Positions 3,747 to 45,061 of a DNA stretch of 45,075 nucleotides are shown piece after piece. Location of the stretch: assembly GCA_929200535.1 (NCBI GenBank), contig CAKMZV010000018.1, positions 1 to 45,075 on the forward strand, given 5' to 3'. The first letter of the stretch is position 1; each line of letters opens with the position of its first letter. The notes under the pieces are model-generated. The model did no database searches and was not told where the DNA came from. It saw only the letters and a program-made list of their open reading frames with translations. This DNA is from an uncultured Gammaproteobacteria bacterium. GTDB taxonomy: Bacteria; Pseudomonadota; Gammaproteobacteria; CAKMZV01. A program made the translations under genes and the position numbers.

Positions 3747-3836
3747 AGGGTAGTCGGTTTATTCAGAGAGCACTTTATATTCCTCTATGCTCCACTTTAT
3801 TTCTGTCATAAGTGCTCTTTGGATATTTGATATTTT

Positions 3837-6675: not shown

Positions 6676-6688
6676 TATAGTATAAGGT

Positions 6689-6876
6689 GAGACCTTTGCA
6701 CAAAAGATATGACAAGTGAAAAAGTGAAAAATTTCCCTGATTTTCGTTGTGAAACTTGCGAAGACGGACGTATTGGCGTAGCCTGTGCTGAACTTGCTTC
6801 AGTATTCCACGCCTCAATTAGAGCGATTTTTTATCTTTTTCCTTTTGCCATACTTTTATGTTTATGCAAAGGTCTC
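6689..6876. mobile_element. MITE, family 1, copy 2 (between sigma and anti-sigma genes)
   Basis: 188 bp, ends gagacctttgcacaaaag and its inverted match ...tttatgcaaaggtctc. An open frame of 65 codons through it has no relatives and simply follows the element. It has an extra segment (ggcgtagcctgtgctgaacttgcttc) compared with copy 1. Insertion between the sigma factor and its regulator may uncouple their expression. Confidence 0.85.
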
Positions 6877-10359: not shown

Positions 10360-11408
10360 TGTAAAGGTTAGGTAATTCGCTGACAGAAATTATAATTATA
10401 ATTTTTGGAGATTTTATGAACCTATCAGACAAAACAGTAGAAAGGAACTACATACAACGCTACCTATTTTTATTTGAAGAATATGCTCAAGTTAAGCAAA
10501 AAAAGCATTCAGAATATCGCTTTCTTAAAGATTTTTATGAATCCCATGCACTTAAACGTCAAGTTTTTCTTAAATTTTACAATCGTTATAAAAACAGTGG
10601 ATTTGATCAGGAGGCCATTCTTCCCCAAAAAAGAGGTCCTAAATGGCTTAGCAGACGACCCAGTCAATACATTGAATCCTGCGTTCTTAAAGAACGAAGA
10701 AAAGGGAACAATAAATTTGAAATTCATCAACTTCTGCTTCCTGTTCTTGGCAGCTTAACCCCAAGCCCCTCAGGTATTTACACGATTTGCAAACGACATA
10801 ATCTCAATATTCTCAATCGACCGATGAAAGAAATCAAAAAGAAAATAATCAAACAAAAGGCGGGTGAGTTAGGACATATTGATGCTCATCACTTAGGCAA
10901 AGGCATCCTTGCGAAAGAACCGCATAATAAATACTACTTGTTAGCCGTTGTGGATAGTTGCACGCGTTTAGCTTGGGCTGAAGTATGCTCTAACTTAACG
11001 AGTTTAGAAGTGATGTTTGCAACGATGCGGTGTTTTTATCGATTACAAGATCAATTTGGCGTGAGATTTAAAGAAATTCTTTCAGACAATGGTAAAGAAT
11101 TTTCAGGAAAAAGAGCAACGGATACAATGCCTGGGCACCCTTTCGAAAGACTGCTCACAGAAATGCAGATAAAACACCGCTATACGCGTCCTTATCGACC
11201 ACAAACAAATGGCAAGGTTGAACGTCTTTGGCGAACTATTGAAGAAGACTTAATAGAAGGAACTCATTTTGAATCGTTGGAACAATTAAAGAACGATTTG
11301 CAGGACTATCTTTTATACTACAATTATGAGAGACCTCACCAAGGCATCAATGGGAAATCCCCTGCTGATTTTTTAAAAAATCTGTCAGCGAATTAGCTAA
11401 CCTTTACA
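10360..11408 (+). mobile_element. IS481-family insertion sequence, complete
   Basis: 1049 bp, beginning tgtaaaggttag and ending ctaacctttaca. The terminal inverted repeats are about 29 bp long with few mismatches (inner part ctgtcagcgaatta). The 5'-TGT...ACA ends and a single DDE transposase gene match IS481. It is flanked by a 5-bp target duplication (ccttt) and inserted in a MITE terminus. Its transposase frame is intact, so it may still be active. Confidence 0.9.
10416..11396 (+). CDS. IS481-family DDE transposase
   Basis: 326 residues, full length for the family. An N-terminal helix-turn-helix region includes the QKRGPKWLSRRPSQYIE segment. The integrase core (rve) begins around residue 145. 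Catalytic residues are visible: D156 in GHIDAHHLGKG, D224 in ILSDNGKEF and E269 in TNGKVERLWRTIEED. The C-terminal YYNYERPHQGINGKSPADFL block is typical. The gene fills the element and stops 12 nt before its right end. Confidence 0.95.
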   Translation: MNLSDKTVERNYIQRYLFLFEEYAQVKQKKHSEYRFLKDFYESHALKRQVFLKFYNRYKNSGFDQEAILPQKRGPKWLSRRPSQYIESCVLKERRKGNNKFEIHQLLLPVLGSLTPSPSGIYTICKRHNLNILNRPMKEIKKKIIKQKAGELGHIDAHHLGKGILAKEPHNKYYLLAVVDSCTRLAWAEVCSNLTSLEVMFATMRCFYRLQDQFGVRFKEILSDNGKEFSGKRATDTMPGHPFERLLTEMQIKHRYTRPYRPQTNGKVERLWRTIEEDLIEGTHFESLEQLKNDLQDYLLYYNYERPHQGINGKSPADFLKNLSAN

Positions 11409-11563
11409 CCTTTGCACAAAAGATATGACAAGTAAAAAAGTAAAAAATTGCCCTGACTTTCGTTGTGAAATTTGCAAAGACGGACGTATTAGCTTCATTT
11501 CACGCCTCAATCAGAACAATTTTTTATCTTTTTTCTTTTGCCATACTTTTGTGCAAAGGTCTC
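11409..11563. mobile_element. MITE, family 1, copy 3: main part after the IS481 insertion
   Basis: It starts with the duplicated ccttt, continues gcacaaaagatatgacaag and ends gtgcaaaggtctc. The sequence is colinear with the other copies. A TATAAT hexamer at 11568-11573, just outside its right end, is the likeliest -10 for ubiE, so the MITE end may supply the -35 side; no good -35 is visible. Confidence 0.85.
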
Positions 11564-11631
11564 AGCCTATAATTAATAAGACGTACTCAACGTCTTAATT
11601 TTTATTTCTATTTTTATTTAGGAGCCCTGTT

Positions 11632-18188: not shown

Positions 18189-18218
18189 TGTTTTTTTTCT
18201 ATTATTATGTTACAAAAT

Positions 18219-18446
18219 GAGAACTTTGCACAAAAGATATGACAAGTAAAAAAGTAAAAAAACGTCCTAATTTTTATCCGCAAGCGGTTCAAACGCTGTT
18301 ACTCTAAGGTTCGTAAACTCACCAAGAGTAAAAACGCTTTTTGTGTTGTGAAATTTGCGAAGACGGACGTATTAGCTTCATTTCACGCCTCAATCAGAAC
18401 GATTTTTTATCTTTTTTCTTTTGCCATACTTTTATGCACAGGTCTC
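18219..18446. mobile_element. MITE, family 1, copy 4 (long variant)
   Basis: 228 bp. Left end gagaactttgcacaaaag, right end inverted cttttatgcacaggtctc. It carries about 80 bp (around 18261-18345, tccgcaagcggttcaaacg...) not found in copies 1-3, and resumes the common core afterwards. It is probably the ancestral or a secondarily enlarged form. Confidence 0.8.
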
Positions 18447-18778
18447 AAAATAAATACAGTGTTGGATAGTACGAGGATACATTAGAGTAAAGAACACGTA
18501 CAAACAAAATCCGCTTCCCTAAGGGAGAGACACAGTTTGTACGTAGTTGATATTTCAAATGTGTTCTTGCACCATATAAAACAAATTATATTAGTGATTT
18601 TCTTACACTTTCAGGAGCCTGAGAAAGAGTAAAAACCTTACCTCTAAATTAATTTTTCAGATATTTTTAACTTAGAAAACTATTCTATGAGTGCTTTAGG
18701 ATTCCACAGATTTGATTAATAATACCCCGTAAATTTAAGAGCGATAGTCAAGAGTTTCTTATAGGTTTTTATACAATT
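18447..18778. other. 332-bp spacer with one inverted-repeat element, no gene
   Basis: It contains one palindromic element (18496-18544) and otherwise only A/T-rich sequence with stops in all frames. The upstream side faces MITE copy 4, the downstream side the end of the MscS gene. I see no further RNA gene or promoter I would defend. Confidence 0.6.
18496..18544. repeat. Palindromic repeat element with perfect 10-bp arms
   Basis: acgtacaaac and gtttgtacgt enclose 29 bp that include ttccctaagggagaga. The same arms next to a ctccctctccctgagggag core appear near the second CRISPR array (39100-39147 and 40365-40415), so this is a degenerate member of that REP-like family. Confidence 0.7.
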
Positions 18779-26130: not shown

Positions 26131-26281
26131 GATAGATACGATTAGGCTGAAAAACCAAGATTAGATAATCAAATATTTAATAGAGGTAAGCTCTATTTTA
26201 TAAGAATGAATGTAGATAATTATACCCTCGATTGAAATATTAACATAGATACGCAACATTTTGCGTATCTACAATCGTTTT
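26131..26281. other. Spacer between nadK and CRISPR array 1, with a palindrome
   Basis: It contains the nadK promoter region and, at 26245-26276, a near-perfect palindrome (gatacgcaacattttgcgtatc) that borders the trailer end of the array. In the array transcript (minus strand) this forms a strong hairpin just after the last repeat and may end or protect the precursor crRNA. Confidence 0.6.
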
Positions 26282-27622
26282 GTTTCAATAGCGATTCTGC
26301 AGAACGCCTTACAACGTAGATACGCAAAATTTTGCGTATCTACGGTGTTGTTTCAATAGCGATTAGAACGCCTTACAACCATGTTTAAAGATGTGCAAAG
26401 TAACGGACTACAAGTTTCAATAGCGATTCTGCAGAACGCCTTACAACATACAGGTGGTCTTATGGGTATGGTCTGGGGTCGTTTCAATAGCGATTAGAAC
26501 GCCTTACAACAAATTTATGAAAAATTCTGCAACATATTACTATGACGTTTCAATAGCGATTCTGCAGAACGCCTTACAACTCCCATCAGCAGTTAATAGA
26601 ACAGTTTATAGCTAAGTTTCAATAGCGATTCTGCAGAACGCCTTACAACCTTGCCCAGCCCCTAAAAGAGATAACGGAAATGTTTCAATAGCGATTCTGC
26701 AGAACGCCTTACAACAGAAAGAATAGACAAGGTCAGAATAAGCTAGCTGATGTTTCAATAGCGATTCTGCAGAACGCCTTACAACAGAAGCAACGTATGG
26801 CAGTTCTGGCGTACATTTTTTGTTTCAATAGCGATTCTGCAGAACGCCTTACAACCCAAAATTGGGAAGAATCGTATTCTTTACAAAAAGTTTCAATAGC
26901 GATTCTGCAGAACGCCTTACAACAAACCTTGTGGTAATCGGGTATGGAAGGCACGCAGTTTCAATAGCGATTCTGCAGAACGCCTTACAACTTAATGAAT
27001 AACATATTAGGTACTTCGTGCATTCTACGTTTCAATAGCGATTCTGCAGAACGCCTTACAACATACGTATGCTCACAGACAGCATATTGTTGATTTTTTT
27101 GAGTTTCAATAGCGATTCTGCAGAACGCCTTACAACAAAGTAAGAGCTATGACTTCTGAAGAAAAGATACTCTGTTTCAATAGCGATTCTGCAGAACGCC
27201 TTACAACCTCATGGGGGACGTTGTGAGAGTTGCAATTTAAGTTTCAATAGCGATTCTGCAGAACGCCTTACAACAAGACGAATGAAGTCAAGCGCGAAAA
27301 TATAGAGAGCGGTTTCAATAGCGATTCTGCAGAACGCCTTACAACAGAAGAAGACCTTATATTGAATAACTTTTTAGACGTTTCAATAGCGATTCTGCAG
27401 AACGCCTTACAACACAATTAAAGAGGAGTAATATGAGCTTACAACAGTTTCAATAGCGATTCTGCAGAACGCCTTACAACGCAAGAGAGTACGCAAGCGT
27501 TATTTGATAATTTGTTTCAATAGCGATTCTGCAGAACGCCTTACAACACCAGCATGCTGATTTTCTTTGAATTTAACTCCGATACGTCGTTTCAATAGCG
27601 ATTCTGCAGAACGCCTTACAAC
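26282..27622 (-). CRISPR. CRISPR array 1, type III-B, 20 repeats
   Basis: 20 repeats and 19 spacers (32-41 nt). The standard repeat is 34 nt with a central TTCTGCAGAA palindrome. Read on the minus strand it begins GTTGTAAGGCG and ends ATTGAAAC, the typical 8-nt crRNA tag of type III systems, so transcription is leftward and the leader is at the right end. Repeats at 26350 and 26481, near the trailer, lack four internal bases (CTGC). The first-listed spacer (26316-26349) is a palindrome. Right-hand repeats are uniform, in keeping with recent insertion there. It lies downstream of cas2 but has its own promoter. Confidence 0.98.
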
Positions 27623-27651
27623 AGTATAGCATTTTTTCATTTTAATTTCAA
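27623..27651 (-). promoter_or_regulatory. Promoter of CRISPR array 1, abutting the first repeat
   Basis: On the minus strand TTGAAA (27646-27651) and TATACT (27623-27628) are exactly 17 nt apart, and a TG one base before the -10 adds an extended -10. The -10 directly touches the leader-side repeat, so transcription should begin within that repeat. The same arrangement is kept at array 2. Confidence 0.8.
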
Positions 27652-27825
27652 GAGGTTATTAAGGCGATTTTGCAAACCTATGAGGTTTTTTGTTTGAATG
27701 TGTTATTTTACGTTTTTTTTCGTGCTAACTTACTGGTATTATTCAAGAAAAAACCTATTTAAGGCTTTTCCTTTTATTTCAATGATTTACGTTTTTTTGA
27801 GAGAATAAAAAATAGGTTTTGTCAA
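27623..27825 (-). promoter_or_regulatory. CRISPR leader of array 1
   Basis: About 200 bp that is nearly identical to the sequence after array 2 (40071-40275). Conserved parts include gcaaacctatgaggtttttt (a small hairpin), a long A/T-rich tract, and an inverted pair aaacctattt / aaataggttt about 50 nt apart. It ends next to the cas2 stop. Conservation between the two arrays shows that it is the functional leader for spacer insertion. Confidence 0.85.
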
Positions 27826-27834
27826 AAAATCATC

Positions 27835-28125
27835 TTAATGTATGCTGGCAAAGGGGATTGGGGTAATCGCTGGAGAGGGAAGTGGTTGAATTTTTTGACA
27901 GCGCGGGTGATTTTTTGTCGCAATATAGTAGCAATGTATTTTATCGGTATCTGGGTCTATTTGTTGGAGTAATCGGCGGTTAATAGCAATAATTTCTCGA
28001 TGTTTTCTCACCGCAATTTGATAAACGCTTTCTTGTATCCTTTCACCATAGTTGAGTAAAATTTTGGCACATCGAAGCCGTTGTTTATCAGAGGCAATAT
28101 CGTAGCAATAAAGATAGTATTTCAT
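27835..28125 (-). CDS. cas2: Cas2, spacer-integration partner of Cas1
   Basis: 96 residues. MKYYLYCYDIASDKQRLRCAKILLNYG shows the ferredoxin-like first strand with D9, and RIQESVYQIAV the usual following strand. It forms the bridge between Cas1 dimers during protospacer integration. It starts 4 nt after the Cas6-RT-Cas1 gene and is the last gene of the cas operon. The leader of array 1 begins about 10 nt beyond its stop. Confidence 0.95.
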   Translation of the reverse strand: MKYYLYCYDIASDKQRLRCAKILLNYGERIQESVYQIAVRKHREIIAINRRLLQQIDPDTDKIHCYYIATKNHPRCQKIQPLPSPAITPIPFASIH

Positions 28126-28129
28126 TGTG

Positions 28130-31090
28130 TTAGATTAATTTTTTGTGATGTTCTTGAATATTTTTAATCAGTGTTTTGTTGCTATTGATTATTTGGTTTA
28201 GGGGGCTGTCTTGTTTGTATTTCTCTTGGGTTAGCGTTTGCATTAGGGTTCGTAGGTAGATTTTTCTTTTGTTTGATGCGAGGTGTATTTTATCATCGTT
28301 ATTTTTGTAGAAATCACTGGGATGAATTTGTTTTAGGTTAATGCACTTGAGAATCGTTTGGTCAATTTGAGTCCTAAGGGGTTCCATTTGATCAGAGGCT
28401 AAGGTTTTGTGTTGTCCTCTTGGTTGGTGCATATAGCCATGGTATGGGTTTAAGCCTTGAATGGTAATGAGGCTATCGGTGTAGTTATATAAAATGGTGT
28501 AGCCAAGTGAGAGTAGTACGTTGATTGGGTCTTTGGGTGGGCGTTTGTTGCGTTGTGTAAATTGGTATTGTGGAGGAATTAATTGTTGGTAGGCGGTGTA
28601 GTAGGCACGTGCTGCTTTGGCTTCAATAGCAATGAGTTGGGTGATATTTTGACTATTGGGAATCAGCTTGATATGGCATTGTAGTGCATTGAGTTGGCGT
28701 AAAATGCTTTTTTTAGTTTTTTCTTGGTAGGTTTGTAAAAGTTTATGTTGTTGGGTTATTTTTTGTTGGATGTTATGCTGGGCAATTTTCAGGGAAAAAT
28801 CTGAATTAGCAAAGCTTTGTATTTGTTGTAGCCAGAGTGTTTTGTTATAGGTATGATTTTGATTGCTGTGTAATGTCCCTTGAAGGCTTCCATTACTTTT
28901 GAGAAAATAGATGTTTTTTTGTTGCTCCAAGGCATTTTGTAAGCTTGCTGTCGTAATTTGATGCTTGCCAATAAGCATTATGGATTGAATTTGTTGCCAT
29001 GGGTAGGTGGCAATGGTGTTTTCTTTTTCACTAATGATTAGTTGGTTTTGTTCCGTATTGAGTTCTTTATATCCGCCTTGTATGATAAGAGTATTCCCAT
29101 AGGGTGTATCTGTTGTTAAGGAGTGGATAAGAGTAGGTTGGTTTGTTGGGATTCTTTCATCATTAAACAGGTAGTTTTTATCGAGTGGATAGGAGGTGTT
29201 TTTTTGTGGTGGTGGAGATGGGAATTCAGGTAGTTCATTTTCGGTGGCTTGTGTGTGATGCGAAAAACGATAACCAAGAAAGTGATAAGATTGCTCAGGA
29301 CTTATATGATTGGTCTTATCTCGATTCGTATAAAGATGATGCTCATTTAATGATTGATTAACCGCTTTTTGAGCTTGTTCGCTTTGTTGTTTGTTTTTGG
29401 AAAGGATAATAAAATCATCTGCATAGCGGATAAGCCGATGCCCTTGTTTTTGTAAGTCGTTATCAAAATCATCAAGAATAATATTGGAGAGAATGGGGCT
29501 AAGTGGGCTACCTTGTGGCAAACCTTTTTCTCTATGGACATAAATTTGTCCGTAAAGGTAGGGGGCTTTTATCCATTGATAAATTAGCTTTATTGCTGGG
29601 TCTTGAGGGAAAAGCCCGTGTAGGCGGACGAGTAGGGTACGATGGTTAATGGTTTCAAAAAATTGTTTAATGTCACTTTCAAATACCCATTTGTAGCCTT
29701 GTTTAATAGCTTTTTCAATGGCATCTTTGGCATCTTTTCGACTACGTTGGGGGCGGTAACCATAACTGTGTTGGTAGAATAGTTGGTCAAGGCGTTGGGA
29801 GAGTATATTAGCAAGAGCTTTTTGCAGAATGCGTTCTTCAAATTTAGGGGCAGTGATAATGCGGTAGCTACCATCTTTTTTTCGTTTTTTCCATGCTTCA
29901 ATAGGAGTGGGTGAGTATTTTTCTTGTTCGAGTTGGTTTTGAATTTCGCTTATTTTACTTTGTAGGTAGGGCGTGTTAATATGAGTATATTGTTGGCGTG
30001 CCGCTACTTTAAGTTCGCTTTTGGCTTGTTGCAAGGTTTGTTCTATATTATTATGGGTAAAGGCTTGTTGTAGGATGTTTGGGGTGGTGGGTGGCGGTCT
30101 GAATAGGTAGGGTTTTTGATTATTTTTTAAGAGATACTTGCCCCACCCAAAAGAACTTAGTGCACCTATGCCTGTGAGTTGGCTGTAGCTTAAAATTTGT
30201 TGCCATTGTGGGCTTAAAGAGTCAGTAAACTCAATTTGAATTTCTCCGAGCATTCCACCGCAGTGGGTTTCATTAGCTTGTTGGGTGCGTGCTTTGAGGT
30301 GTAGCCAGAATAGGTCTGTTTGATATTTTTTAATACGTGGAAGATAGGCTTCTAATTCATCAAAAGTTTGGCTGGGAGTGTTGCTTTGTTGATTATTCAG
30401 GTTGTTGGCAAGATAGAATAAGAGACGTGGGATGTTGGTATTATCTTGATCTGCCATATAGCGTTGCTCACCTTTGTAGGATTGAGCCGCTTTTTTTAGC
30501 AGACGCACTGGGCTTAGCCATTGCAGGGTAAGTTCTTTTTGCCAAGAAAGTTGCTCAATTTGGTGAGAAAAATCTTGGTAAGTAATAGGGTGTAAATAAT
30601 CGCTTAATTGTTGGGGGAGTTCTGTGGATGAAAGTGTGGTTAAATTAAGGGGCTCTGCTTGGTGCCATTGTTGGTTAGTTTCAGGGAGATTAAATAGCGG
30701 CAGGTTTTGAATTTTGGTGAGCTTGATATTTTGTGGATCAAGGCTACTTGGTTTTCGAGATTGAGTGGAGGTAGTGGCGGTGTTCGTGTGGATTTGCAAT
30801 AGCAATTCATTTAAAAATTGTGGGGACTGGTGTGGGTTGGTAAGTAGAATATCAAAACTATAATCAGCATTAGATAGATAAGAGGGAGTGCCACTTTCAA
30901 TGGCATCTATTTTGCAGTAAGTATTAAAATTTTCAGCGTATTGCTGATCAGATTGGGCAATTTGCCCACGCAAATAACCAGCAAGAATATAGCGGTGATT
31001 AAAGGGGAAAGTGGTGGGTTGTTTTAACGTTAGCGTTATTCGCAAACGATAAATTGGGAATAGCGGTTGTAAATCAGGTAATGCAGACAA
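28130..31090 (-). CDS. cas1: Cas6-reverse transcriptase-Cas1 fusion
   Basis: 986 residues in three parts. Residues 1 to about 322: Cas6-like RAMP fold ending in the glycine-rich loop LTGIGALSSFGWGKYLL (305-321), for cutting precursor crRNA. About 370-615: group II intron-like reverse transcriptase with D473 in ESDIKQFF, GLPQGSPLSPILSN (523-536) and YADD (556-559). About 640-986: Cas1 with metal ligands E823 (IEAKAARAYY), H888 (YHGYMHQPRG) and D900 (ASDQMEP). Active-site residues of RT and Cas1 are all present. Such fusions, known from Marinomonas, can acquire spacers from RNA. The protein is strikingly glutamine-rich. Confidence 0.96.
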   Translation of the reverse strand: MSALPDLQPLFPIYRLRITLTLKQPTTFPFNHRYILAGYLRGQIAQSDQQYAENFNTYCKIDAIESGTPSYLSNADYSFDILLTNPHQSPQFLNELLLQIHTNTATTSTQSRKPSSLDPQNIKLTKIQNLPLFNLPETNQQWHQAEPLNLTTLSSTELPQQLSDYLHPITYQDFSHQIEQLSWQKELTLQWLSPVRLLKKAAQSYKGEQRYMADQDNTNIPRLLFYLANNLNNQQSNTPSQTFDELEAYLPRIKKYQTDLFWLHLKARTQQANETHCGGMLGEIQIEFTDSLSPQWQQILSYSQLTGIGALSSFGWGKYLLKNNQKPYLFRPPPTTPNILQQAFTHNNIEQTLQQAKSELKVAARQQYTHINTPYLQSKISEIQNQLEQEKYSPTPIEAWKKRKKDGSYRIITAPKFEERILQKALANILSQRLDQLFYQHSYGYRPQRSRKDAKDAIEKAIKQGYKWVFESDIKQFFETINHRTLLVRLHGLFPQDPAIKLIYQWIKAPYLYGQIYVHREKGLPQGSPLSPILSNIILDDFDNDLQKQGHRLIRYADDFIILSKNKQQSEQAQKAVNQSLNEHHLYTNRDKTNHISPEQSYHFLGYRFSHHTQATENELPEFPSPPPQKNTSYPLDKNYLFNDERIPTNQPTLIHSLTTDTPYGNTLIIQGGYKELNTEQNQLIISEKENTIATYPWQQIQSIMLIGKHQITTASLQNALEQQKNIYFLKSNGSLQGTLHSNQNHTYNKTLWLQQIQSFANSDFSLKIAQHNIQQKITQQHKLLQTYQEKTKKSILRQLNALQCHIKLIPNSQNITQLIAIEAKAARAYYTAYQQLIPPQYQFTQRNKRPPKDPINVLLSLGYTILYNYTDSLITIQGLNPYHGYMHQPRGQHKTLASDQMEPLRTQIDQTILKCINLKQIHPSDFYKNNDDKIHLASNKRKIYLRTLMQTLTQEKYKQDSPLNQIINSNKTLIKNIQEHHKKLI

Positions 31091-32010: not shown

Positions 32011-33231
32011 TTAGTTGCGTAATTTTTTTAGCTGTTTTTTTGTGCCATCACGAATTGGCTTTTCGGGGTATTTATGATGAAAATTAGTGTCTTGTACGAG
32101 TTGTTGTAAATAATTAATAATTTCTGTTTTTATCTCGTTATGTGCTTCTATATTTTTAAGCAACTGGTTAGGGTTTTCTATATGAAATTCTAATTTGTTA
32201 TCAATTTCAGCAAGATTTTCATCAATCAGCTTTTTTTGCCATTCGGGGGCATTAGAATAAAACGTTTTTTTTGCTTGATTTTTGTCGCTTTCTTCTTTTT
32301 CTTCTGCCTCTTTTTTTTCCCTCTCCTTTTTTTCTTTTTCTATTTTGGCTTTTTCTTCTGCTTCTTTTTGTTCCTTTTCTGCCTGTTCTTTTTCTATTTT
32401 GGTTTTTTCTTCGGAGGTGAGTTCAAAATATCCAAACCCAGTGGCAGTTTTGGCTCCTAAGCCGAAGTGGGTGAGTTGGTTTTCAAGGGCTTGTCTTAAT
32501 AAATCAAGATCTTTTTGTTGATCATTATGTTTGCAAGCAGAGGTGGGGGCAATGGCAAATTGAAATTTTGTACCTTTAGCAATGGCAAGGAACTGAATGG
32601 GGTTAGGTTCGTGCCAGTCACCGGGAATTTTATCGGCTTCTTTTGATAAATCATCGTCTTTAACGTCCTTAATATCGCCACCTTGGGCATACCAACTGCC
32701 GTAATGCGGAGTCATTATTTCTTTGCATAGTTCGATGGTGCCACTTGGTAGGGCATCGAAAAATTGATAGTTTCCTATTGCAGGTGCATTGGTATCATCG
32801 CTACCAAAAATTCGTTGTATTATTGCTTCCCTTTCAGGGATGTCTAACCAATTATCAAAGTAGTCTCTAAGAGCTCCTTTGATGGCTGAGCCAGCAATAT
32901 AGGGAAGCCCCCAAGTGGGGTGAAATAATAGTCCATTTTCTAATGGATGGTCTTGCCCCATACCGGTAACTAACGAAGTAGTGGCTTCGTATTTGATCGT
33001 TATTCCGCCAAGGTGTTCGCAGAGAGCTTTGATTTGTGCACTATTCTTTTTTAAGTTTTGGTTAATGGAATGAGTTTTGATGAATTTATCAATAAATTGA
33101 TGTTTGTTATCGGTGGTTTTTTTAAAATTTTCAATGTATTGATTGAAATATTTTTCAAAGTAAAGTCCGAGGTTGTAGGTATTTCCACAGGCTACAGTGC
33201 CAATATTGCTATGAAGGGGGCGAGGAGGCAT
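32011..33231 (-). CDS. cmr6: Cmr6, type III-B backbone subunit with a C-terminal extension
   Basis: 406 residues, longer than the usual 250-300. The RAMP core (1-272) shows GLLFHPTWGLPYIAGSAIKGALRDYF, FFDALPSG and the glycine loop HFGLGAKTATGFGYFEL. After it comes a highly charged E/K helix (273-320) and an extra domain of about 80 residues. Cmr6 caps the Cmr effector at the target's 5' side. It lies 18 nt after cmr5. What the extension does is unknown; a coiled-coil contact to another subunit or to the membrane protein encoded next is possible. Confidence 0.92.
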   Translation of the reverse strand: MPPRPLHSNIGTVACGNTYNLGLYFEKYFNQYIENFKKTTDNKHQFIDKFIKTHSINQNLKKNSAQIKALCEHLGGITIKYEATTSLVTGMGQDHPLENGLLFHPTWGLPYIAGSAIKGALRDYFDNWLDIPEREAIIQRIFGSDDTNAPAIGNYQFFDALPSGTIELCKEIMTPHYGSWYAQGGDIKDVKDDDLSKEADKIPGDWHEPNPIQFLAIAKGTKFQFAIAPTSACKHNDQQKDLDLLRQALENQLTHFGLGAKTATGFGYFELTSEEKTKIEKEQAEKEQKEAEEKAKIEKEKKEREKKEAEEKEESDKNQAKKTFYSNAPEWQKKLIDENLAEIDNKLEFHIENPNQLLKNIEAHNEIKTEIINYLQQLVQDTNFHHKYPEKPIRDGTKKQLKKLRN

Positions 33232-33249: not shown

Positions 33250-33693
33250 TTATGTTACGTTTGAATTATCCTTAGATGGAATTAGGGCAGTGGCAAGTTG
33301 CTTAATCCATTTGCAATAGGCGAGGGTTTCTGCGGTGGCTATTTGATATTCTTGCTGGGTTATTTCGGTAATGGCTTTAACTAAGTCAGGATTTTGTGGG
33401 TCAATAGGAATCAGTTTTTCTCCTGATAGCCAATCTTGAATAGATTTATATAGGCGATGATAAGCATACCCCTCTTCCTTATTGGGCTCAGAATCACTTT
33501 TTGCTTTAGCAAATGCCATTGCTTGACCAAAGCCATTGATAAGTATCATTGTCGGTAATGAGCGTGCATAGGATTTAAGGCGATCGGATTTAGTAGGTTT
33601 TTCTTTATAACAATTATTATAAGATTCTACTAAATCAAAAGCTGCCTTGGCTCGGCGTTGCTCAATATTGTGTGGGTTGGTTTCTTGAGTCAT
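33250..33693 (-). CDS. cmr5: Cmr5, small subunit of the type III-B effector
   Basis: 147 residues. The helical family pattern is present: IEQRRAKAAFDLVE, SYARSLPTMILINGFGQAMAFAKAK, YAYHRLYKSIQDWL and the C-terminal EYQIATAETLAYCKWIKQLATALI. Cmr5 stacks along the Cmr4 backbone and the crRNA-target duplex. Gaps to cmr4 (17 nt) and cmr6 (18 nt) are small. Confidence 0.95.
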   Translation of the reverse strand: MTQETNPHNIEQRRAKAAFDLVESYNNCYKEKPTKSDRLKSYARSLPTMILINGFGQAMAFAKAKSDSEPNKEEGYAYHRLYKSIQDWLSGEKLIPIDPQNPDLVKAITEITQQEYQIATAETLAYCKWIKQLATALIPSKDNSNVT

Positions 33694-33710: not shown

Positions 33711-34691
33711 TTAAGGGTTGCTTTGATTATTGGGCGTATCATTAGATGGATAGAAGAAGGTTTTGCACCATCCCATCCCGACGGTTTCATTGCCTCCTAT
33801 TTGTAAGTAGGCTTTGTTTTGACTTTGATCAAGCTGGTTTTCAATCTTCTCAATCACATCTTGGGCTGATAACGATTGTATATCGTTTGAATTATCCTCT
33901 GTCCCATTTTGCTTATCTTGCCCTTTTTCTTCGGTGTTTTTAGGGGTAGGTTTATGGCTATCATTGGCAATAATCAAACTATAAAGCAGGGTTTCAGGGG
34001 GGAGACTTTCTTCATACCATAGTGCCCCAGACTTGACGATTTTATTTTCTTCTATCTTAATATGTGGGGTAATGGTGGTGGCTACTTGACATAGGTGGGC
34101 GAATTGGTCGTTACTGACGATGCTGAGGGTTGCTAATGTTGTTTCATCAGATGGGCTAAAAATTGTTTGTAGTTCCTTTTGCCATTCTTCTAATAAAGCA
34201 TTTTGTTTTATCTCATAGCGATATTCTTCTAAATAGATTTTCCCAGTAGTTGCTGTGGTAATGATTTTGTCTTCTGCCACGATTGGAATGGCAAGAGTAC
34301 AACCTTGTCCGATTTGAATGAGTTGATCTTTTAAGCGTTGTAGTAGATGCGGGCAAGTAAGTAGGCGATATTGCGTGGTGAGACTGCGTACTGGTAGAGC
34401 AAGAAGTCTGGCATCACCTATGGCGATTGCTGAGGCTTGGGAAACATCTTCATCTTTTTTGCCATCCCCTTTGCCGTAAATTTCATCTATATTGGGTAAG
34501 TTTTGCTGCTTGGCGTTAGCCCTTAGAGCCCCCTTAACTGCTGATCCGAAAATAACTGGGTAGCCAGTGTGGCTTTCGCGCATAATGGGTAGGTCTATTA
34601 CGTCAAGAGATTGCCCCGAGCCTGCGTGGATTGAGGTGATGGCTTGTAGGGAGAGAAGTTTATAAGTACTTGTGGTGTTTTGATTACTCAT
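33711..34691 (-). CDS. cmr4: Cmr4, backbone ribonuclease subunit of the type III-B effector
   Basis: 326 residues. The N-terminal ITSIHAGSGQSLDVIDLPIMRESHTGYPVIFGSAVKGALR is the Cmr4 signature and includes the aspartate that cuts target RNA every 6 nt. AIAIGDARLLALPVRSL and the C-terminal YLQIGGNETVGMGWC follow. A serine- and asparagine-rich insertion lies near residues 250-285 (NTEEKGQDKQNGTEDNSNDIQ). Several copies form the filament along the crRNA. Confidence 0.96.
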   Translation of the reverse strand: MSNQNTTSTYKLLSLQAITSIHAGSGQSLDVIDLPIMRESHTGYPVIFGSAVKGALRANAKQQNLPNIDEIYGKGDGKKDEDVSQASAIAIGDARLLALPVRSLTTQYRLLTCPHLLQRLKDQLIQIGQGCTLAIPIVAEDKIITTATTGKIYLEEYRYEIKQNALLEEWQKELQTIFSPSDETTLATLSIVSNDQFAHLCQVATTITPHIKIEENKIVKSGALWYEESLPPETLLYSLIIANDSHKPTPKNTEEKGQDKQNGTEDNSNDIQSLSAQDVIEKIENQLDQSQNKAYLQIGGNETVGMGWCKTFFYPSNDTPNNQSNP

Positions 34692-34720: not shown

Positions 34721-36007
34721 TTATGATGTGGGTTTAGGTTGGTCCCAGTAAGTATAAAAGTAGGGTTTAACCTGAGAGTATTGAGAGAGTTGAGAGTCTG
34801 CTGGGAAAATATTTTCTCCTTTTTCTAATTTTTCTGTTGAAGCATCACTTAACTCAAGAAAATAGACACTCCCTTCGCTGAGGTAGTTAATCATTGAGCG
34901 TGGTCTGTTTTTAGCAAGATCCCAGCCTCCAACAGCACGGCTTTTGGGGAGTACGGCAGTGATTAGATAGTCTTCTGAATCAGAGCCGTTTATTGGGATT
35001 CTACAATCCGTGGGTTTCGCTAACTTTGCATAAGGAAATCCTTGAAGTTTCATCCAATTATCCATTGCGGGTATGTCTTTATTAAGAATTAGGGCGATTT
35101 TGTTGCAGTTAGTTTTATTGATCGATACATTTTGATTGATGTTTTCTTTTTTATCGGAGTTGGTTTTATCGGTAGATGACTCCTGATTTTTAATTTCTAT
35201 TTTATCAATAAATGCGACTCTTCCCTCGCCACCTAATCGTACACTGCCTGCTTCTATGTTCAGTTCTTTAGGGTGCTTGAGGGTAACGAAATAAGCAAAA
35301 CCTTGCTTGAGCCGAATATGGTTATTTTGGTAGAGCATGCCCTCCTCTGCTTGTCGATTGGCACCTACTTGAATGCCAAGATGAAATTCTTTGGTGATGA
35401 TTTGATCAATTGAAATATGGGCAAGTTCGTTTAGTTTTTTATCTGCAAATTTAGGGTTGCTATTTTTTGAGGGTTGTTGATAGTTAAGTGCTTTTTTATA
35501 GTTTTTTTCCGTGAGGTAGGCGTTTTGCAGTGGCTTGTAGCCCGGGGAAATATTATCAGGCAATTCACAGAGGTGACAATAGCCAATATCGGTTTGGAAA
35601 ATTTGCTTGCTTGGTTTCAGGAAAGCGTATTTATTTTCTTTACTGTTATAGCATAGGTGAGCTGGTGCTTTATAGAGTAATTGCTTTGTTGGCGTGTGGA
35701 TAAGTTTTAAATGCTCAATCGCAAGGTCTGGGGAGTTAAATGCAAATAGTTCAGCAAAGTTTATACCCACGTCGTCTCTTTTGTAAACCTTGTTGTCTTT
35801 TATTGCTTGAGTTAATTCTTGAAAGTTAATACCATATTGCCTACCTATCATTGCTTTAATTGCCCCAAGCAAGGTGGAGAGAGGAGGCATTTTTTCACTC
35901 TCTATAATGGCATTTCCCTTGGCGTTCATCGGTCTTGCTTCTTTAAAAAAGAGGCTATCATTGGGAGTGATAATAAGGTTAGTGGTTTTTACTTCCAGTG
36001 TTTCCAT
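34721..36007 (-). CDS. cmr3: Cmr3, 5'-tag binding subunit of the type III-B effector
   Basis: 428 residues. The Cmr3 frame is visible: IITPNDSLFFKEARPM at the start, PPLSTLLGAIKAMIGRQYG, HLGIQVGANRQAEEGMLYQNNHIRL, VRLGGEGRVAFI and the C-terminal AVLPKSRAVGGWDLAKNRPRSMINYLSEGSVYFLEL. It grips the 8-nt crRNA tag next to Cas10. An asparagine/lysine-rich insert lies near residues 275-300. Confidence 0.95.
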   Translation of the reverse strand: METLEVKTTNLIITPNDSLFFKEARPMNAKGNAIIESEKMPPLSTLLGAIKAMIGRQYGINFQELTQAIKDNKVYKRDDVGINFAELFAFNSPDLAIEHLKLIHTPTKQLLYKAPAHLCYNSKENKYAFLKPSKQIFQTDIGYCHLCELPDNISPGYKPLQNAYLTEKNYKKALNYQQPSKNSNPKFADKKLNELAHISIDQIITKEFHLGIQVGANRQAEEGMLYQNNHIRLKQGFAYFVTLKHPKELNIEAGSVRLGGEGRVAFIDKIEIKNQESSTDKTNSDKKENINQNVSINKTNCNKIALILNKDIPAMDNWMKLQGFPYAKLAKPTDCRIPINGSDSEDYLITAVLPKSRAVGGWDLAKNRPRSMINYLSEGSVYFLELSDASTEKLEKGENIFPADSQLSQYSQVKPYFYTYWDQPKPTS

Positions 36008-36028: not shown

Positions 36029-37819
36029 TTAGGTGTTTTTTTTCGTCTCGTGTACAACGCCATCTGTTGCAATAAAGCGAGCAATCATTGCCGCTGCATA
36101 ACCGATTTCCCCTGTAGGTTTTTGATGTTCAACCAAGCGAGATTGGTTGATAAGTTGTTTTACTAAATCTTCCTTTGTATTTTTTTCTTTTTTTTCTTTT
36201 TTATTTTCTTCTTCTTTGTTATCGTTTGAACTTACGCTTTTGGAGTGAAAGTAGTCTGTTAAGATAAGTTGTTCTAAGAGTTGCTTGTTATCATTATCTA
36301 TTTTCTCACCAACAAGGTGATAGGTGGAACGAAAGCGTTGGATAAATTTTTGAGAAAATGTTTTGTCGCTTGTTGCTTCGGTATTATTTGCTGTTTCTGT
36401 ATCTTGTTTTCGTAAGTCGTCTATGATAATGTTTCCATCCTTATCAAGAACGGTAGGAAAGCACTCTTTTTCAGAAGCGTCACAATCTGCTGTTTTGTTA
36501 TCCCAAGGCAGACACCAAGTGGCTAAACGACCACTGGGTTTATTCACCTCTAAGGCTAAGGCGTTTCTGCCTGTTTTCTCTTTGGCAATGCTGTCAAGAA
36601 GTTCATTAGCACGGTTAATTGATTGCATTAATGGCATTTTATATTGTGTATAAACAATGGCTCCGCTGATGGTGAGAGGTTCTTTTTCTTCTTGTTGAGA
36701 GTTGTTATTGCTTGTTGGATTAAATTTCTTGTCAAATTCTTGGCGTAATTCGACTGCAGTTTGCAGCGCTGTATTTACTGGAAGCAGAGCAAGAACATCT
36801 TCACCACCGCAATAAATTAGTAATCCGTTGTTACGGTTTACTATATTTGAGACTATGTCAACATATGCATTTAAGGATGTTTTTATTGTATGACGTGTAT
36901 TAGGATCGTGTAGGAAGCTACCAAAGCGATCACCGTCCATTGATAGGATTGCGTAGAATGACGGCTCACCTTTATTTAAATGCTCTTCTTTTTCATCGAT
37001 GTTTTTCGCTATTTTATTTATAGGTAGTATTTTTTGTAAGGGATTTTCAGTCTTGAAGTTCAGTGTGAATTTACCTTTTTCTTCTTCTAATTCAATCTTA
37101 ACACCGTTTTGGAAAGCACTATAAAAACGCCTTTTAATATAAGCGATGGCACATAAATGCTCTGTTTTTATATCTTTGTCAGTATTGTTGGATTTTTCAT
37201 ATATGTTTTCCCAGACCGCTTTCCAAAAATCATTTCGTTTATCTGCTCCGAGTTGCTTGCATCCTGAAAGTTCTTGCAAACCAGGCATTAGCATACATTT
37301 AAATCCTTCTTCGGTAGGTGGGAAATGGCTTGCTACATTTTTTCTTAGGTCTAATGATTTGGGGTTTTCATAGTCTGTCATCACCCACTGAATATGGAGG
37401 TAATTCTTAACTTGCCTATCCCAAATTTTTTTAGTTTCGTCTTTGCTTACTGGAAAAACTTTTTCCTCCAGTTTTTCAAAATCTTTCTCCCAAATTTTAT
37501 CTGCGATTCCTTGAAAAGTTTTTTTGATATGGGTTACAACAATGTCGGGCTCAAACTTATCATCAACCTTTGCGAAGAAGCGATTAGGAAACTTCGGAAA
37601 GGTTGGGACCTCACTTTTTTCTTCTTCTACCCATTTAGTATTTTCTTTATCTGCGAAAGGAAGTAGTATCTCAATCTCTTCACCTTGGCGAAGCGTAGAG
37701 CGAATACCTACCGTAGCAAGCATTGAAAGAATGTAAGAACCTGAATGCAAATCTCGTACTCTACGAGCGGTAGCAATAAATTCTTTAACAGGACCGATGG
37801 ATAGTTGGAAATAAGGCAT
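36029..37819 (-). CDS. cmr2: Cmr2/Cas10 without HD domain, cyclic oligoadenylate synthase
   Basis: 596 residues, far shorter than HD-containing Cmr2. The protein starts MPYFQLSIGPVKEFIATARRVRDLHSGSYILS, directly with the first palm-like domain, so the HD DNase is absent. The second palm has SMDGDRFGSFLHD (293-305) and YCGGEDVLALLPV (336-348), where GGED replaces the usual GGDD. Both acidic positions are kept, so cyclic oligoadenylate synthesis is likely. Residues about 545-570 are a K/E-rich insertion. With no DNase, immunity should rely on Cmr4 and on the signal-driven membrane protein encoded in the operon. Confidence 0.94.
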   Translation of the reverse strand: MPYFQLSIGPVKEFIATARRVRDLHSGSYILSMLATVGIRSTLRQGEEIEILLPFADKENTKWVEEEKSEVPTFPKFPNRFFAKVDDKFEPDIVVTHIKKTFQGIADKIWEKDFEKLEEKVFPVSKDETKKIWDRQVKNYLHIQWVMTDYENPKSLDLRKNVASHFPPTEEGFKCMLMPGLQELSGCKQLGADKRNDFWKAVWENIYEKSNNTDKDIKTEHLCAIAYIKRRFYSAFQNGVKIELEEEKGKFTLNFKTENPLQKILPINKIAKNIDEKEEHLNKGEPSFYAILSMDGDRFGSFLHDPNTRHTIKTSLNAYVDIVSNIVNRNNGLLIYCGGEDVLALLPVNTALQTAVELRQEFDKKFNPTSNNNSQQEEKEPLTISGAIVYTQYKMPLMQSINRANELLDSIAKEKTGRNALALEVNKPSGRLATWCLPWDNKTADCDASEKECFPTVLDKDGNIIIDDLRKQDTETANNTEATSDKTFSQKFIQRFRSTYHLVGEKIDNDNKQLLEQLILTDYFHSKSVSSNDNKEEENKKEKKEKNTKEDLVKQLINQSRLVEHQKPTGEIGYAAAMIARFIATDGVVHETKKNT

Positions 37820-37845: not shown

Positions 37846-38901
37846 TTATTCGATGGATGCTTTTTGCAGGTTGCCAATAAAGTTATTATAATCTTCGGGT
37901 TTGGGAATGCAAGAGGCATCATTAATCTCAGGATGGTAAATTGAGCTGGGCATCGTTATTGCAAGCATATGATATTTCCCATCCTTTTCATTTTCATTTT
38001 TATTTTTATAGGCATGAAAATAAATGCCTTTGGTTCTTCTATTTTCCCAATACATTTTTTGAGATAGCGTTGTGTTAAATTTTATTCTTTTAGGAAGTCC
38101 TGTAATGAGTTTTGTTGTTTCAATCTTCTCTTTGACCACATTTGCATATTTATTGCTAAATTCCCTAATTAATTGAGTTGAACTGTTAGCACGTAGTATA
38201 GTTTGTTCTATGTATGTTTCTTGGCTGAGTGCACTGTAGGGTGGTAAGGAGCCTGTTAGCGTTTGGAATGTGTCTGGTATCGGTTTATTAAAAGTAAACG
38301 CTTGCCCATTTAGCTGAGTCAATTGGATGCTACCAAAGCCATTGCGGGATTTTGCACCTAAATTTGCCACATATCCCATTATTTCTAATAATTCTTCAAT
38401 ACTTTGTTGTTGTTCTGCATCTGAATTTTTATGGAATGTGATTTCTATTTTAAATTCTCCTCCGGCTTGAATATTCTTTTCTGCTGTTTTTTTACTTTTT
38501 TCTGCTGGTTTTTTCTTTTTGTCATCTTCTCCTTTGCCATAGGCAATATATAGCGATGAGAATCGTGTATCTTTAGATAGCGTTACATTTGTTGAAAGAA
38601 CTTTGAGGCTAAAAGCCCCTTGACCGTAGATTTTATTTGTTTTAGAGTTGATGGCACTTGAGCCAAAAAGGAGAGCTTCTTTGTGATGTAAATCTGTGAG
38701 TGCTTCGGCATCACTATTGGCACCTTTTCTACAGTCTTCCCAATGAGTTGCTCGCCACCAAAAACGCATTACGCCTTTAAAGGATTGAGGGGATATGGTG
38801 TCGCTTTCTTTATTATCCGCATTCCCCAAAAACATTGGCGTGATTATCTTATATTCAGCAGTAATGGTTTTGGGTGTACTAAAGTTAGAGTTTGTTGTCA
38901 T
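37846..38901 (-). CDS. cmr1: Cmr1, type III-B subunit near the target's 3' cap
   Basis: 351 residues. KTITAEYKIITPMFLGNADNKESDTISPQSFKGVMRFWWRATHW is the standard Cmr1 start, and YVANLGAKSRNGFGSIQL the glycine-rich RAMP loop. First gene of the operon, 26 nt before cmr2, with a good promoter about 70 nt upstream. Confidence 0.95.
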   Translation of the reverse strand: MTTNSNFSTPKTITAEYKIITPMFLGNADNKESDTISPQSFKGVMRFWWRATHWEDCRKGANSDAEALTDLHHKEALLFGSSAINSKTNKIYGQGAFSLKVLSTNVTLSKDTRFSSLYIAYGKGEDDKKKKPAEKSKKTAEKNIQAGGEFKIEITFHKNSDAEQQQSIEELLEIMGYVANLGAKSRNGFGSIQLTQLNGQAFTFNKPIPDTFQTLTGSLPPYSALSQETYIEQTILRANSSTQLIREFSNKYANVVKEKIETTKLITGLPKRIKFNTTLSQKMYWENRRTKGIYFHAYKNKNENEKDGKYHMLAITMPSSIYHPEINDASCIPKPEDYNNFIGNLQKASIE

Positions 38902-39075: not shown

Positions 39076-39099
39076 CGCTTTTGTGGGTATTTGCTCTGT

Positions 39100-39147
39100 C
39101 CCCTCACCCCAACCCTCTCCCTCAGGGAGAGGGGGTAGTTTGTACGT
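39100..39147. repeat. REP-like palindromic element at the trailer end of array 2
   Basis: ccctcaccccaaccctctcc followed by ctcagggagagggggtag and gtttgtacgt. The cctctccctcagggagagg core is a perfect palindrome. It borders the first degenerate repeat of array 2. Confidence 0.85.
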
Positions 39148-39154
39148 TTTATAT

Positions 39155-40070
39155 GCTTCAAGCGATTCTGCAGAACGCCTTACAACTTACTAAACTTGAT
39201 GGGAAAATTCTTGCAACAATTGTTTCAATAGCGATTCTGCAGAACGCCTTACAACAACAAGCTGAATTAAAGTGGGGCAAACACTTAGTCGTTTCAATAG
39301 CGATTCTGCAGAACGCCTTACAACAACAAGCTGAATTAAAGTGGGGCAAACACTTAGTCGTTTCAATAGCGATTCTGCAGAACGCCTTACAACAAATCTC
39401 ATTCGTTTGTCATTACTGAAAGTTCCGTTTCAATAGCGATTCTGCAGAACGCCTTACAACTCTGTACCAACCTATCTCTTAAACATATGTGCTTAGAAGT
39501 TTCAATAGCGATTCTGCAGAACGCCTTACAACATGGGATGATAAAATGTCATTCCTGGGCTATAGTTTCAATAGCGATTCTGCAGAACGCCTTACAACTT
39601 TTATGTATGTAATAGATAATAAGTACTGGTTGGTTTCAATAGCGATTCTGCAGAACGCCTTACAACCATCTATCCGGATTTTGCTTCTACCCCTTATTCT
39701 GTTTCAATAGCGATTCTGCAGAACGCCTTACAACAAACTATGTGCACCTGGTAAGGTAGGGCTTTAGTTTCAATAGCGATTCTGCAGAACGCCTTACAAC
39801 GGCAACAAGGGCTACTTACTATCGGGTGAAATTAGTTTCAATAGCGATTCTGCAGAACGCCTTACAACAGTTAAGTATCAAAGTAATTATCTTTATCACT
39901 ATGTTTCAATAGCGATTCTGCAGAACGCCTTACAACTGAGGGGCTACCTACATTCGGGGAGGTTACTAAGGTTTCAATAGCGATTCTGCAGAACGCCTTA
40001 CAACAAATTGTCGTCAGTGTTCTCCGACGCCAATCTGTTTCAATAGCGATTCTGCAGAACGCCTTACAAC
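39155..40070 (-). CRISPR. CRISPR array 2, type III-B, 14 repeats
   Basis: 14 repeats, the same 34-nt unit as array 1, and 13 spacers (32-38 nt). The leftmost repeat (39155-39186) is degenerate in its first bases (two lost, one changed), marking the trailer; the leader lies at the right. Spacers 39256-39290 and 39325-39359 are identical, a duplication of one repeat-spacer unit. Orientation is the same as in array 1 and the cas operon, upstream of which it lies. No spacer is shared between the two arrays on reading. Confidence 0.98.
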
Positions 40071-40099
40071 AGTATAGCATTTTTTCATTTTAATTTCAA
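40071..40099 (-). promoter_or_regulatory. Promoter of CRISPR array 2, abutting the first repeat
   Basis: TTGAAA (40094-40099) and TATACT (40071-40076) on the minus strand are 17 nt apart, with the -10 in contact with the repeat, the same as at array 1. Confidence 0.8.
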
Positions 40100-40275
40100 T
40101 AGGTTATAAGGGCGATTTTGCAAACCTATGAGGTTTTTTGTTTGAATGTGTTTTTTTACGCTTTTTTTCGTGCTAACTTACTGGTATTATTCAAGAAAAA
40201 ACCTATTTGAGGCTTTTCCTTTTATTTCAATGATTTACGATTTTTTGAGATGATGGAAAATAGGTTTTGTTATCA
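40071..40275 (-). promoter_or_regulatory. CRISPR leader of array 2
   Basis: About 205 bp nearly identical to the leader of array 1, with a handful of substitutions and small indels. Similarity ends near 40275, where the sequence passes into a unique stretch and a REP-like element before dapB. Because this copy has no cas2 next to it, array 2 probably arose by duplication of the leader end of array 1, or the reverse. Confidence 0.85.
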
Positions 40276-40364
40276 AAACATATTAGTCCTATCTTTACGC
40301 ATAAGGAAAGCTTTTGTGAAAAGGGGGAGAATAAGACAAGGTTGCATTGCAATAAATACCAATT

Positions 40365-41335: not shown

Positions 41336-41372
41336 CCCCCTCACCCCAGCCCTCTCCCTCAGGGAGAGGGAG
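41336..41372. repeat. REP-like palindromic element
   Basis: cccctcaccccagccctctc followed by cctcagggagagggagtc; same family and orientation as 39100-39147. Confidence 0.85.
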
Positions 41373-45024: not shown

Positions 45025-45061
45025 CCCCCTCACCCCAGCCCTCTCCCTCAGGGAGAGGGAG
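45025..45061. repeat. REP-like palindromic element at the window end
   Basis: ccccctcaccccagccctct followed by ccctcagggagagggagc; same family as the copies around the CRISPR arrays and dapB. Confidence 0.85.

What the first reader, a model, noticed from the sequence alone, without database searches (positions are those of the whole stretch)
28130..31090. Three-domain Cas6-RT-Cas1 with intact RT and integrase sites
Seen: the Cas6 glycine loop, YADD and QGSP of the RT, and the Cas1 E/H/D triad are all present in a 986-residue chain. Known: Cas6-RT-Cas1 of Marinomonas acquires spacers from RNA. Inferred: this host can record RNA from phages or transcripts. The strong glutamine bias of the protein is unusual relative to its neighbours.
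Basis: partly seen in the sequence, partly recalled or inferred. Interest (0 to 1): 0.6.

Follow-up and report, generated by a model that had tools for sequence, protein, structure and literature searches.

The report
Three-part CRISPR spacer-writer with reverse transcriptase
A bacterium carries a known kind of three-in-one CRISPR enzyme that can probably write RNA as well as DNA fragments into its immune memory; the enzyme itself is ordinary, but the stored fragments, whose sources are unknown, read clearly as pieces of protein-coding messages lying in the orientation that can bind those messages.

Summary
Window 28130-31090 (minus strand) is an intact 986-aa Cas6-RT-Cas1. The RT tree places it inside the known Cas6-RT-Cas1 clade. 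It belongs to a complete type III-B operon (cas2, a membrane-Csx16 protein, cmr6/5/4/3, cas10, cmr1) between two CRISPR arrays with near-identical leaders. It is a new member of a known kind.

The inference "this host records RNA" is plausible by homology but not shown. I found no phage or plasmid source for any spacer. A reference-free codon test shows that the 31 unique spacers are mostly antisense to coding sequence (sign-flip p = 1.7e-4). A type I-F array in the same genome shows no such bias (difference p = 0.003). Arrays of related Cas6-RT-Cas1 loci lean the same way in 26 of 27 loci. A small set of non-RT III-B arrays leans that way too, so the bias most likely reflects selection for usable type III guides and does not prove RNA acquisition. 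An excess of T at spacer starts in RT-linked loci fits dA-tailing of RNA but is not decisive. The glutamine bias is not specific to this enzyme.

The parts
28130..31090 (-). Cas6-RT-Cas1 fusion, 986 aa, TTG start: Cas6 about 1-330, RT about 336-615 without thumb/X, disordered linker 612-663, Cas1 about 664-986
27835..28125 (-). cas2, 96 aa, 4 bp downstream of the fusion
   Evidence: PF09827 E 2.2e-15, TIGR01573
31106..31990 (-). Membrane-Csx16 protein, 294 aa: two transmembrane helices, small beta-beta-alpha-beta-beta domain (predicted, low confidence), C-terminal Csx16 ring-nuclease domain 195-290
   Evidence: PF09652 E 1.7e-16, TIGR02620, PADLOC Csx16; hydropathy and homologues in L047 and L030; model
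32011..33231 (-). cmr6
   Evidence: TIGR01898 E 5.1e-36
33250..33693 (-). cmr5
   Evidence: PF09701 E 6e-30
33711..34691 (-). cmr4
   Evidence: TIGR02580 E 1.4e-62
34721..36007 (-). cmr3
   Evidence: PF09700 E 1.1e-35
36029..37819 (-). cas10/cmr2, 596 aa, palm GGED motif at 338-341, no HD nuclease domain match
   Evidence: PF22335, TIGR02577; motif scan
37846..38901 (-). cmr1
   Evidence: TIGR01894 E 7.1e-15
26282..27622 (-). CRISPR array 1: 20 repeats, 19 spacers of 32-41 nt; repeat GTTGTAAGGCGTTCTGCAGAATCGCTATTGAAAC; two leader-distal repeats (26350-26379, 26481-26510) lack 4 bp of the central palindrome
27623..27837 (-). Leader of array 1
   Evidence: 199 of 215 positions identical to the leader of array 2
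39155..40070 (-). CRISPR array 2: 14 repeats, 13 spacers, one repeat-spacer unit duplicated (39222-39359); degenerate terminal repeat 39155-39186
40071..40285 (-). Leader of array 2
26316..26349 (-). Oldest spacer of array 1: 31 of 34 nt identical to REP-like palindromes elsewhere in the genome

Best explanation
A complete, probably working type III-B CRISPR-Cas system with a Cas6-RT-Cas1/Cas2 adaptation module. The most likely mechanism has four steps. (1) Cas6-RT-Cas1 with Cas2 captures DNA or RNA fragments of about 34 nt and joins them to the leader-proximal repeat through the Cas1 domain; for RNA, the RT tails and copies the fragment (inferred from MMB-1 and Thiomicrospira). (2) The Cas6 domain cuts the array transcript to give guides with an ATTGAAAC handle (inferred from the repeat end). 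(3) The Cmr-Cas10 complex uses guides complementary to phage mRNA. Shown here: the spacers lie mostly antisense to coding sequence. (4) Cas10 makes cyclic oligoadenylate, which the membrane-Csx16 protein probably senses through its small middle domain and degrades through Csx16, i.e. a membrane effector with its own off-switch (inferred, weak). The antisense bias of the spacers most likely comes mainly from retention of guides that work, not from oriented acquisition.
For: Whole-chain sequence and fold match to 7KFT/7KFU. All five experimentally tested residues have identical counterparts. RT tree: window plus L024 at 100*, inside a starred clade of 41 rows of which 40 score as Cas6-RT-Cas1; the fusion label needs only 2 changes on the tree. 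Full Cmr operon with short intergenic gaps of 4-29 bp and the GGED palm. Two arrays with near-identical leaders. Spacer test: summed codon log-likelihood +49.3, sign-flip p 1.7e-4, 0 of 500 dinucleotide shuffles reach it; base composition alone gives only +4.4. Same-genome type I-F array: implied antisense fraction 0.48 [0.30-0.66] against 0.84 [0.66-1.03], difference p 0.003. Related loci: 531 spacers in 43 Cas6-RT-Cas1 arrays, 0.78 [0.71-0.86]; 26 of 27 loci positive, p 4e-7. One spacer's complement (A1_3) holds AAAGAGGAGTAATATG, which looks like a ribosome-binding site plus start codon.
Against: No expression or activity data. No protospacer identified. Nine non-RT III-B arrays (117 spacers) show a similar pooled bias, 0.99 [0.58-1.31], so the bias does not point to RNA acquisition; that control is small and not significant locus by locus (5 of 6). 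The Thiomicrospira enzyme prefers DNA and RNA/DNA hybrids to ssRNA as substrate (PMC8102632). The membrane-Csx16 model has low confidence and no significant fold match.
Confidence: 0.85

Rival explanations
1. RNA is the main natural source of these spacers: the RT tails RNA 3' ends with dA and inserts them mostly antisense, so the antisense bias is set at acquisition.
For: RT-linked arrays have a T excess at spacer 5' positions 1-2 (+0.095 [0.070-0.124], 1203 spacers, 62 loci; positive in 22 of 27 Cas6-RT-Cas1 and 16 of 20 RT-Cas1 loci), absent in the non-RT III-B set (1 of 6 loci) and the own I-F array. This is the footprint expected from noncoded A added to RNA 3' ends (PMC11014452). The only spacer with a traceable source, the REP spacer, has 3 unmatched nt at one junction. 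MMB-1 RT-Cas1 shows a moderate antisense bias that vanishes when the RT is deleted (PMC5576922).
Against: In MMB-1 new RNA spacers are only marginally antisense (PMC5576922). Non-RT III-B arrays lean the same way without an RT. The T excess is the same in spacers called sense and antisense, against the simple tail model, although about half of the sense calls are expected to be wrong (estimate). In the window itself the excess is small (+0.066, n = 31). The non-RT control set comes from one repeat family only.
Confidence: 0.3
2. The RT is a passenger or acts as a DNA polymerase in spacer completion; spacers come from DNA, and type III interference then filters for antisense ones.
For: The Thiomicrospira homologue integrates DNA far better than ssRNA and copies DNA templates efficiently (PMC8102632). 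The antisense bias needs no RT. Type III spacers are biased to the coding strand in general, about 65% of mapped ones (PMC8482600).
Against: All RT catalytic residues are invariant and the RT-helix lysine K592 is present in 24 of 25 members; D540 and K574 mutations in the homologue hit RNA ligation hardest. The MMB-1 enzyme acquires RNA spacers in an RT-dependent way (PMC5513706, PMC5576922).
Confidence: 0.3
3. A decayed or inactive locus.
For: Two leader-distal repeats carry deletions and the array 2 end repeat is degenerate. The sister genome L024 keeps only a 31-codon scar of the membrane-Csx16 gene.
Against: All genes are open with intact catalytic motifs. Repeats are otherwise identical and end degeneracy is usual. 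The antisense coding bias of the spacers indicates selection on guides.
Confidence: 0.05

Closest known systems
Thiomicrospira Cas6-RT-Cas1-Cas2 (PDB 7KFT/7KFU, PMC8102632)
   Same: Domain order, length (984-residue chain against 986 aa), all tested catalytic residues, Cas2 partner; a close Thiomicrospira relative (L047) has a related two-TM protein in its locus
   Different: About 30% identity; the window's two-TM protein carries a Csx16 domain
Marinomonas mediterranea MMB-1 type III-B Cas6-RT-Cas1 (PMC5576922, PMC11014452; Cas6 domain PDB 6DD5)
   Same: Three-domain fusion in a type III-B system, a type I-F system in the same genome, spacers of about 34-35 nt
   Different: RNA acquisition shown there, not here; two arrays flank this operon with near-identical leaders; a Marme_0670-type adaptation gene was not looked for here
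L024, uncultured Gammaproteobacteria bacterium EG15H_Bin1
   Same: 60% identical fusion, cas2 downstream and cmr6 upstream
   Different: Its membrane-Csx16 gene is reduced to a 31-codon remnant
Csx16 ring nuclease (PMC12409355) and two-TM cyclic-oligoadenylate effectors Csx23 (PMC11014256) and Cap1 (PMC12642688)
   Same: Csx16 domain by Pfam, NCBIfam and PADLOC; two N-terminal TM helices plus a small soluble domain
   Different: TM part and Csx16 in one chain; no significant sequence or fold match to Csx23 or Cap1; PADLOC already lists a CARF_CSX16_TM class with a different layout

Membership tests
Cas6-RT-Cas1 fusion (branch 1 of PMC5513706) | Cas6, RT and Cas1 domains in one open frame, in that order | tested here: met
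   the Pfam Cas6 model alone is below cut-off
Cas6-RT-Cas1 fusion (branch 1 of PMC5513706) | RT phylogeny groups with other Cas6-RT-Cas1 | tested here: met
   starred clade of 41 rows, 40 scored as the three-domain fusion; MMB-1 itself was not in the tree because its RT sequence is not held
Cas6-RT-Cas1 fusion (branch 1 of PMC5513706) | Catalytic residues of all three domains | tested here: met
RNA-acquiring RT-Cas1 system | RT-dependent acquisition of spacers from RNA | not testable with these tools
   needs a wet experiment
RNA-acquiring RT-Cas1 system | Noncoded A-rich junction nucleotides | tested here: inconclusive
   5' T excess at family level, small in the window, not split by orientation as predicted
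Type III-B CRISPR-Cas | cmr1-6 with Cas10/Cmr2 | tested here: met
Type III-B CRISPR-Cas | Guides complementary to transcripts | tested here: met
   statistical, by codon test only:
Group II intron RT | Intron RNA and maturase X/thumb domain | tested here: not met
   RT match stops near residue 615 and runs into the disordered linker and Cas1; intron RNA not searched
Csx23 or Cap1-type membrane effector | Two TM helices plus cA4-binding domain | tested here: inconclusive
   two TM helices yes; middle domain unmatched in sequence and fold searches
Csx16 ring nuclease | Csx16 domain above curated cut-off | tested here: met
   PF09652 60.6 bits against 25; TIGR02620 50.6 against 46.35; cA4 cleavage not tested

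The most novel reading that the evidence does not exclude
The unmatched spacers of RT-linked type III arrays as a class, this one included, are pieces of protein-coding transcripts of unsampled mobile elements, captured largely as RNA: they read as coding sequence on the antisense strand across about 47 loci and carry a T-rich 5' junction left by dA-tailing of RNA 3' ends. If so, the 'enigmatic' RT spacer pool becomes readable without any matching phage genome.
Probability: 0.25. Interest if true: 0.65.

Novelty: new member of a known kind. Interest (0 to 1): 0.33.

Why it matters
The enzyme adds one more, diverged (about 30% identical) example to a family whose natural spacer sources are called enigmatic (PMC5513706). 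The useful result is methodological: a codon-strand test shows without any protospacer match that these spacers come from protein-coding sequence in the guide-competent orientation, which argues against random or non-coding origins. The same genome's type I-F array gives a clean negative control. A two-TM protein fused to a Csx16 ring nuclease, intact here and deleted in the sister lineage, would be a membrane effector with a built-in off-switch if confirmed.

Tried and rejected
Spacer sources: blastn of both arrays against phages and plasmids gave nothing except one Klebsiella phage KpLz-2_45 hit (E 0.1, 32 of 36 nt, antisense to the neighbouring genes), treated as chance. Eight codon-degenerate spacer patterns in viral contigs gave 0 hits. 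A FabA-like self match of spacer A1_4 (E 0.19) is chance. Array 2 has no self match outside the arrays at E up to 1. The antisense bias as proof of RNA acquisition: rejected, because non-RT III-B arrays lean the same way. A leader-proximal against leader-distal comparison showed no consistent trend. The T-junction test split by orientation did not separate as the tail model predicts. Csx23 or Cap1 identity of the membrane protein: not supported by sequence or fold search; a motif resemblance to Cap1 (D-x-R-x-x-x-Q) rests on eye only. The first genome-contig scan with the single protein found nothing; the alignment scan found 80 loci.

Full report
Observation. The ORF at 28130-31090 on the minus strand is open over 986 codons with a TTG start. 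The frame has a stop three codons upstream of that TTG, so no earlier start is possible, and the conserved Cas6 residues H32 and R41 lie close behind it; TTG is therefore the likely start, inferred rather than shown. Pfam assigns Cas1 and RT strongly and Cas6 weakly. A profile built from eight relatives matches the solved Thiomicrospira Cas6-RT-Cas1 (7KFT) over its full length at E 1.3e-259 and the solved MMB-1 Cas6 domain at 1.4e-68. The AlphaFold model built on 25 relatives has mean pLDDT 84.5 with one long disordered stretch, the RT-Cas1 linker at 612-663. Its best solved match is 7KFU over the whole chain at E 5.7e-48, with the isolated Cas1 part of 7KFT at TM-score 0.88.

Active sites. 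Across 25 three-domain relatives D473, D558, D559, E823, H888, D900 and E903 are invariant; H32, R41 and K592 are nearly so; R850 is R in 22 and Q in 3. The Thiomicrospira study (PMC8102632) tested R37, D540, K574, R835 and H873. By alignment these are R41, D558, K592, R850 and H888 here. [quoted passage not shown] All five residues have an identical counterpart here.

Locus. Downstream lie cas2 and array 1 with its leader. Upstream lie a membrane-Csx16 gene, cmr6, cmr5, cmr4, cmr3, cas10 (596 aa, GGED palm, no HD match) and cmr1, then array 2. Gaps between the cas genes are 4-29 bp. Both arrays have the repeat GTTGTAAGGCGTTCTGCAGAATCGCTATTGAAAC in guide orientation and leaders identical at 199 of 215 positions. 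They hold 19 and 13 spacers, mostly 32-37 nt. The same genome holds a complete type I-F system with a 44-spacer array on another contig, the pairing known from M. mediterranea MMB-1 (PMC5576922).

Kinship. The closest protein is L024 (60% identity); the others aligned are near 30%. The quick RT tree puts the window with L024 at 100 support, inside a starred set of 41 rows of which 40 score as the three-domain fusion. The fusion label needs two changes on the tree against about 30 under shuffling. This agrees with the published single origin of Cas6-RT-Cas1 (PMC5513706). MMB-1 itself could not be included.

Spacers. Because no protospacers were found, I scored each spacer for coding potential on either strand with a codon model learned from the genes of the same locus. 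For the 31 unique spacers the strand opposite to the guide scores as coding: sum +49.3, 23 of 31 positive, sign-flip p 1.7e-4, reached by 0 of 500 dinucleotide shuffles. Strand composition alone gives +4.4. Comparison with held-out gene fragments implies about 84-94% antisense, with wide intervals. The type I-F array of the same genome, scored with the same joint model, gives 0.48 [0.30-0.66], and the difference has permutation p 0.003. So the bias belongs to the III-B arrays and is not a property of the test.

Comparison set. In 43 arrays (531 spacers) of other Cas6-RT-Cas1 loci the implied antisense fraction is 0.78 [0.71-0.86], and 0.85 [0.78-0.94] in 28 RT-Cas1 arrays (587 spacers). Per locus, 26 of 27 and 18 of 20 are positive. 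Nine gammaproteobacterial III-B arrays without an RT in the fetched stretch (117 spacers) give 0.99 [0.58-1.31], pooled z 4.4, but only 5 of 6 loci are positive, which is not significant by locus. Published mapping found 65% coding-strand targeting in type III overall and relates it to selection for RNA targeting (PMC8482600). New RT-dependent spacers of MMB-1 are only marginally antisense (PMC5576922). The natural bias is therefore best read as retention of guides that work. Array orientation was set by the repeat end and by the strand of the RT gene, not by the score.

RNA footprints. MMB-1 RT-Cas1 adds short A-rich tails to RNA 3' ends before integration (PMC11014452), which predicts T at the start of antisense-inserted spacers. 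RT-linked arrays do show this: +0.095 [0.070-0.124] over 1203 spacers, positive in 22 of 27 and 16 of 20 loci, against 1 of 6 in the non-RT set and none in the own I-F array. The prediction came from the paper, but several end positions were inspected at once, so some selection is involved. The excess does not differ between spacers called sense and antisense, and in the window it is only +0.066 with 31 spacers. I treat it as suggestive at family level only. The window shows an unexplained excess of T at spacer 3' positions -1 and -3 (0.55 and 0.58).

A self-derived spacer. The oldest spacer of array 1 carries a 28-nt perfect palindrome; 31 of its 34 nt match REP-like elements elsewhere in the genome, one copy beside a gene that matches the REP-associated tyrosine transposase family below its curated cut-off. 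Three nt at the leader side do not match any held copy. A diverged copy lies directly beyond the array end at 26245-26272.

Membrane-Csx16. The 294-aa protein has two hydrophobic helices, a middle region and a Csx16 domain. The N-terminal part has homologues without Csx16 in the Cas6-RT-Cas1 loci of a Thiomicrospira (L047) and a Methylocaldum (L030). Csx16 degrades cA4 (PMC12409355), and the two-TM effectors Csx23 and Cap1 are activated by cA4 (PMC11014256, PMC12642688). The reading as an effector with an attached off-switch is inference; the model is of low confidence and has no significant fold match. In L024 the gene is cut down to a 31-codon frame that joins its first and last residues, so it is dispensable there or the assembly is wrong.

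Verdict. Observation confirmed; identity confirmed; RNA recording plausible but undemonstrated. The enzyme is a new member of a known kind. The spacer result is the part worth keeping.

Noticed in passing
window 26316-26349; L123 (G000:C36), L124 1122-1715 (G000:C15): Oldest spacer of array 1 is a host REP-like palindrome (31 of 34 nt), with a REP-associated tyrosine transposase-like gene beside one genomic copy; a diverged copy lies just outside the array at 26245-26272.
   Followed up: partly
L024 1-444: In the nearest relative the membrane-Csx16 gene is a 31-codon remnant, MRSNDKKNGILGKEFKQTNPQLIDYQVTKVK, joining the first and last residues of the window's protein.
   Followed up: partly
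L159 (G000:C29): Complete type I-F system with a 44-spacer array in the same genome, no strand bias in its spacers.
   Followed up: yes
L017-L103 arrays, pooled: RT-linked arrays show a T excess at the first two spacer positions; the small non-RT III-B set does not.
   Followed up: partly
window arrays 26282-27622 and 39155-40070: T at spacer 3' positions -1 (0.55) and -3 (0.58) against 0.31 inside; unexplained.
   Followed up: no
window 26350-26379, 26481-26510: Two leader-distal repeats of array 1 lack 4 bp of the central palindrome that could form the repeat hairpin.
   Followed up: no
window 39222-39359: A repeat-spacer unit of array 2 is exactly duplicated.
   Followed up: no
window 3821-3996, 6673-6871, 11389-11564, 18203-18447: Family of related intergenic repeats sharing TTTGCACAAAAGATATGACAAGT, one next to an rve-domain transposase (10416-11396); looks like a mobile-element remnant family.
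   Followed up: no
window 39099-39135, 41336-41372, 45025-45061: Repeated 37-nt palindromic element CCCCTCACCCCAGCCCTCTCCCTCAGGGAGAGGG in intergenic stretches.
   Followed up: no
window 4031-4885: MbnB/TglH/ChrH-type RiPP modification enzyme (PF05114, E 4.2e-100) followed by a 264-aa ORF.
   Followed up: no
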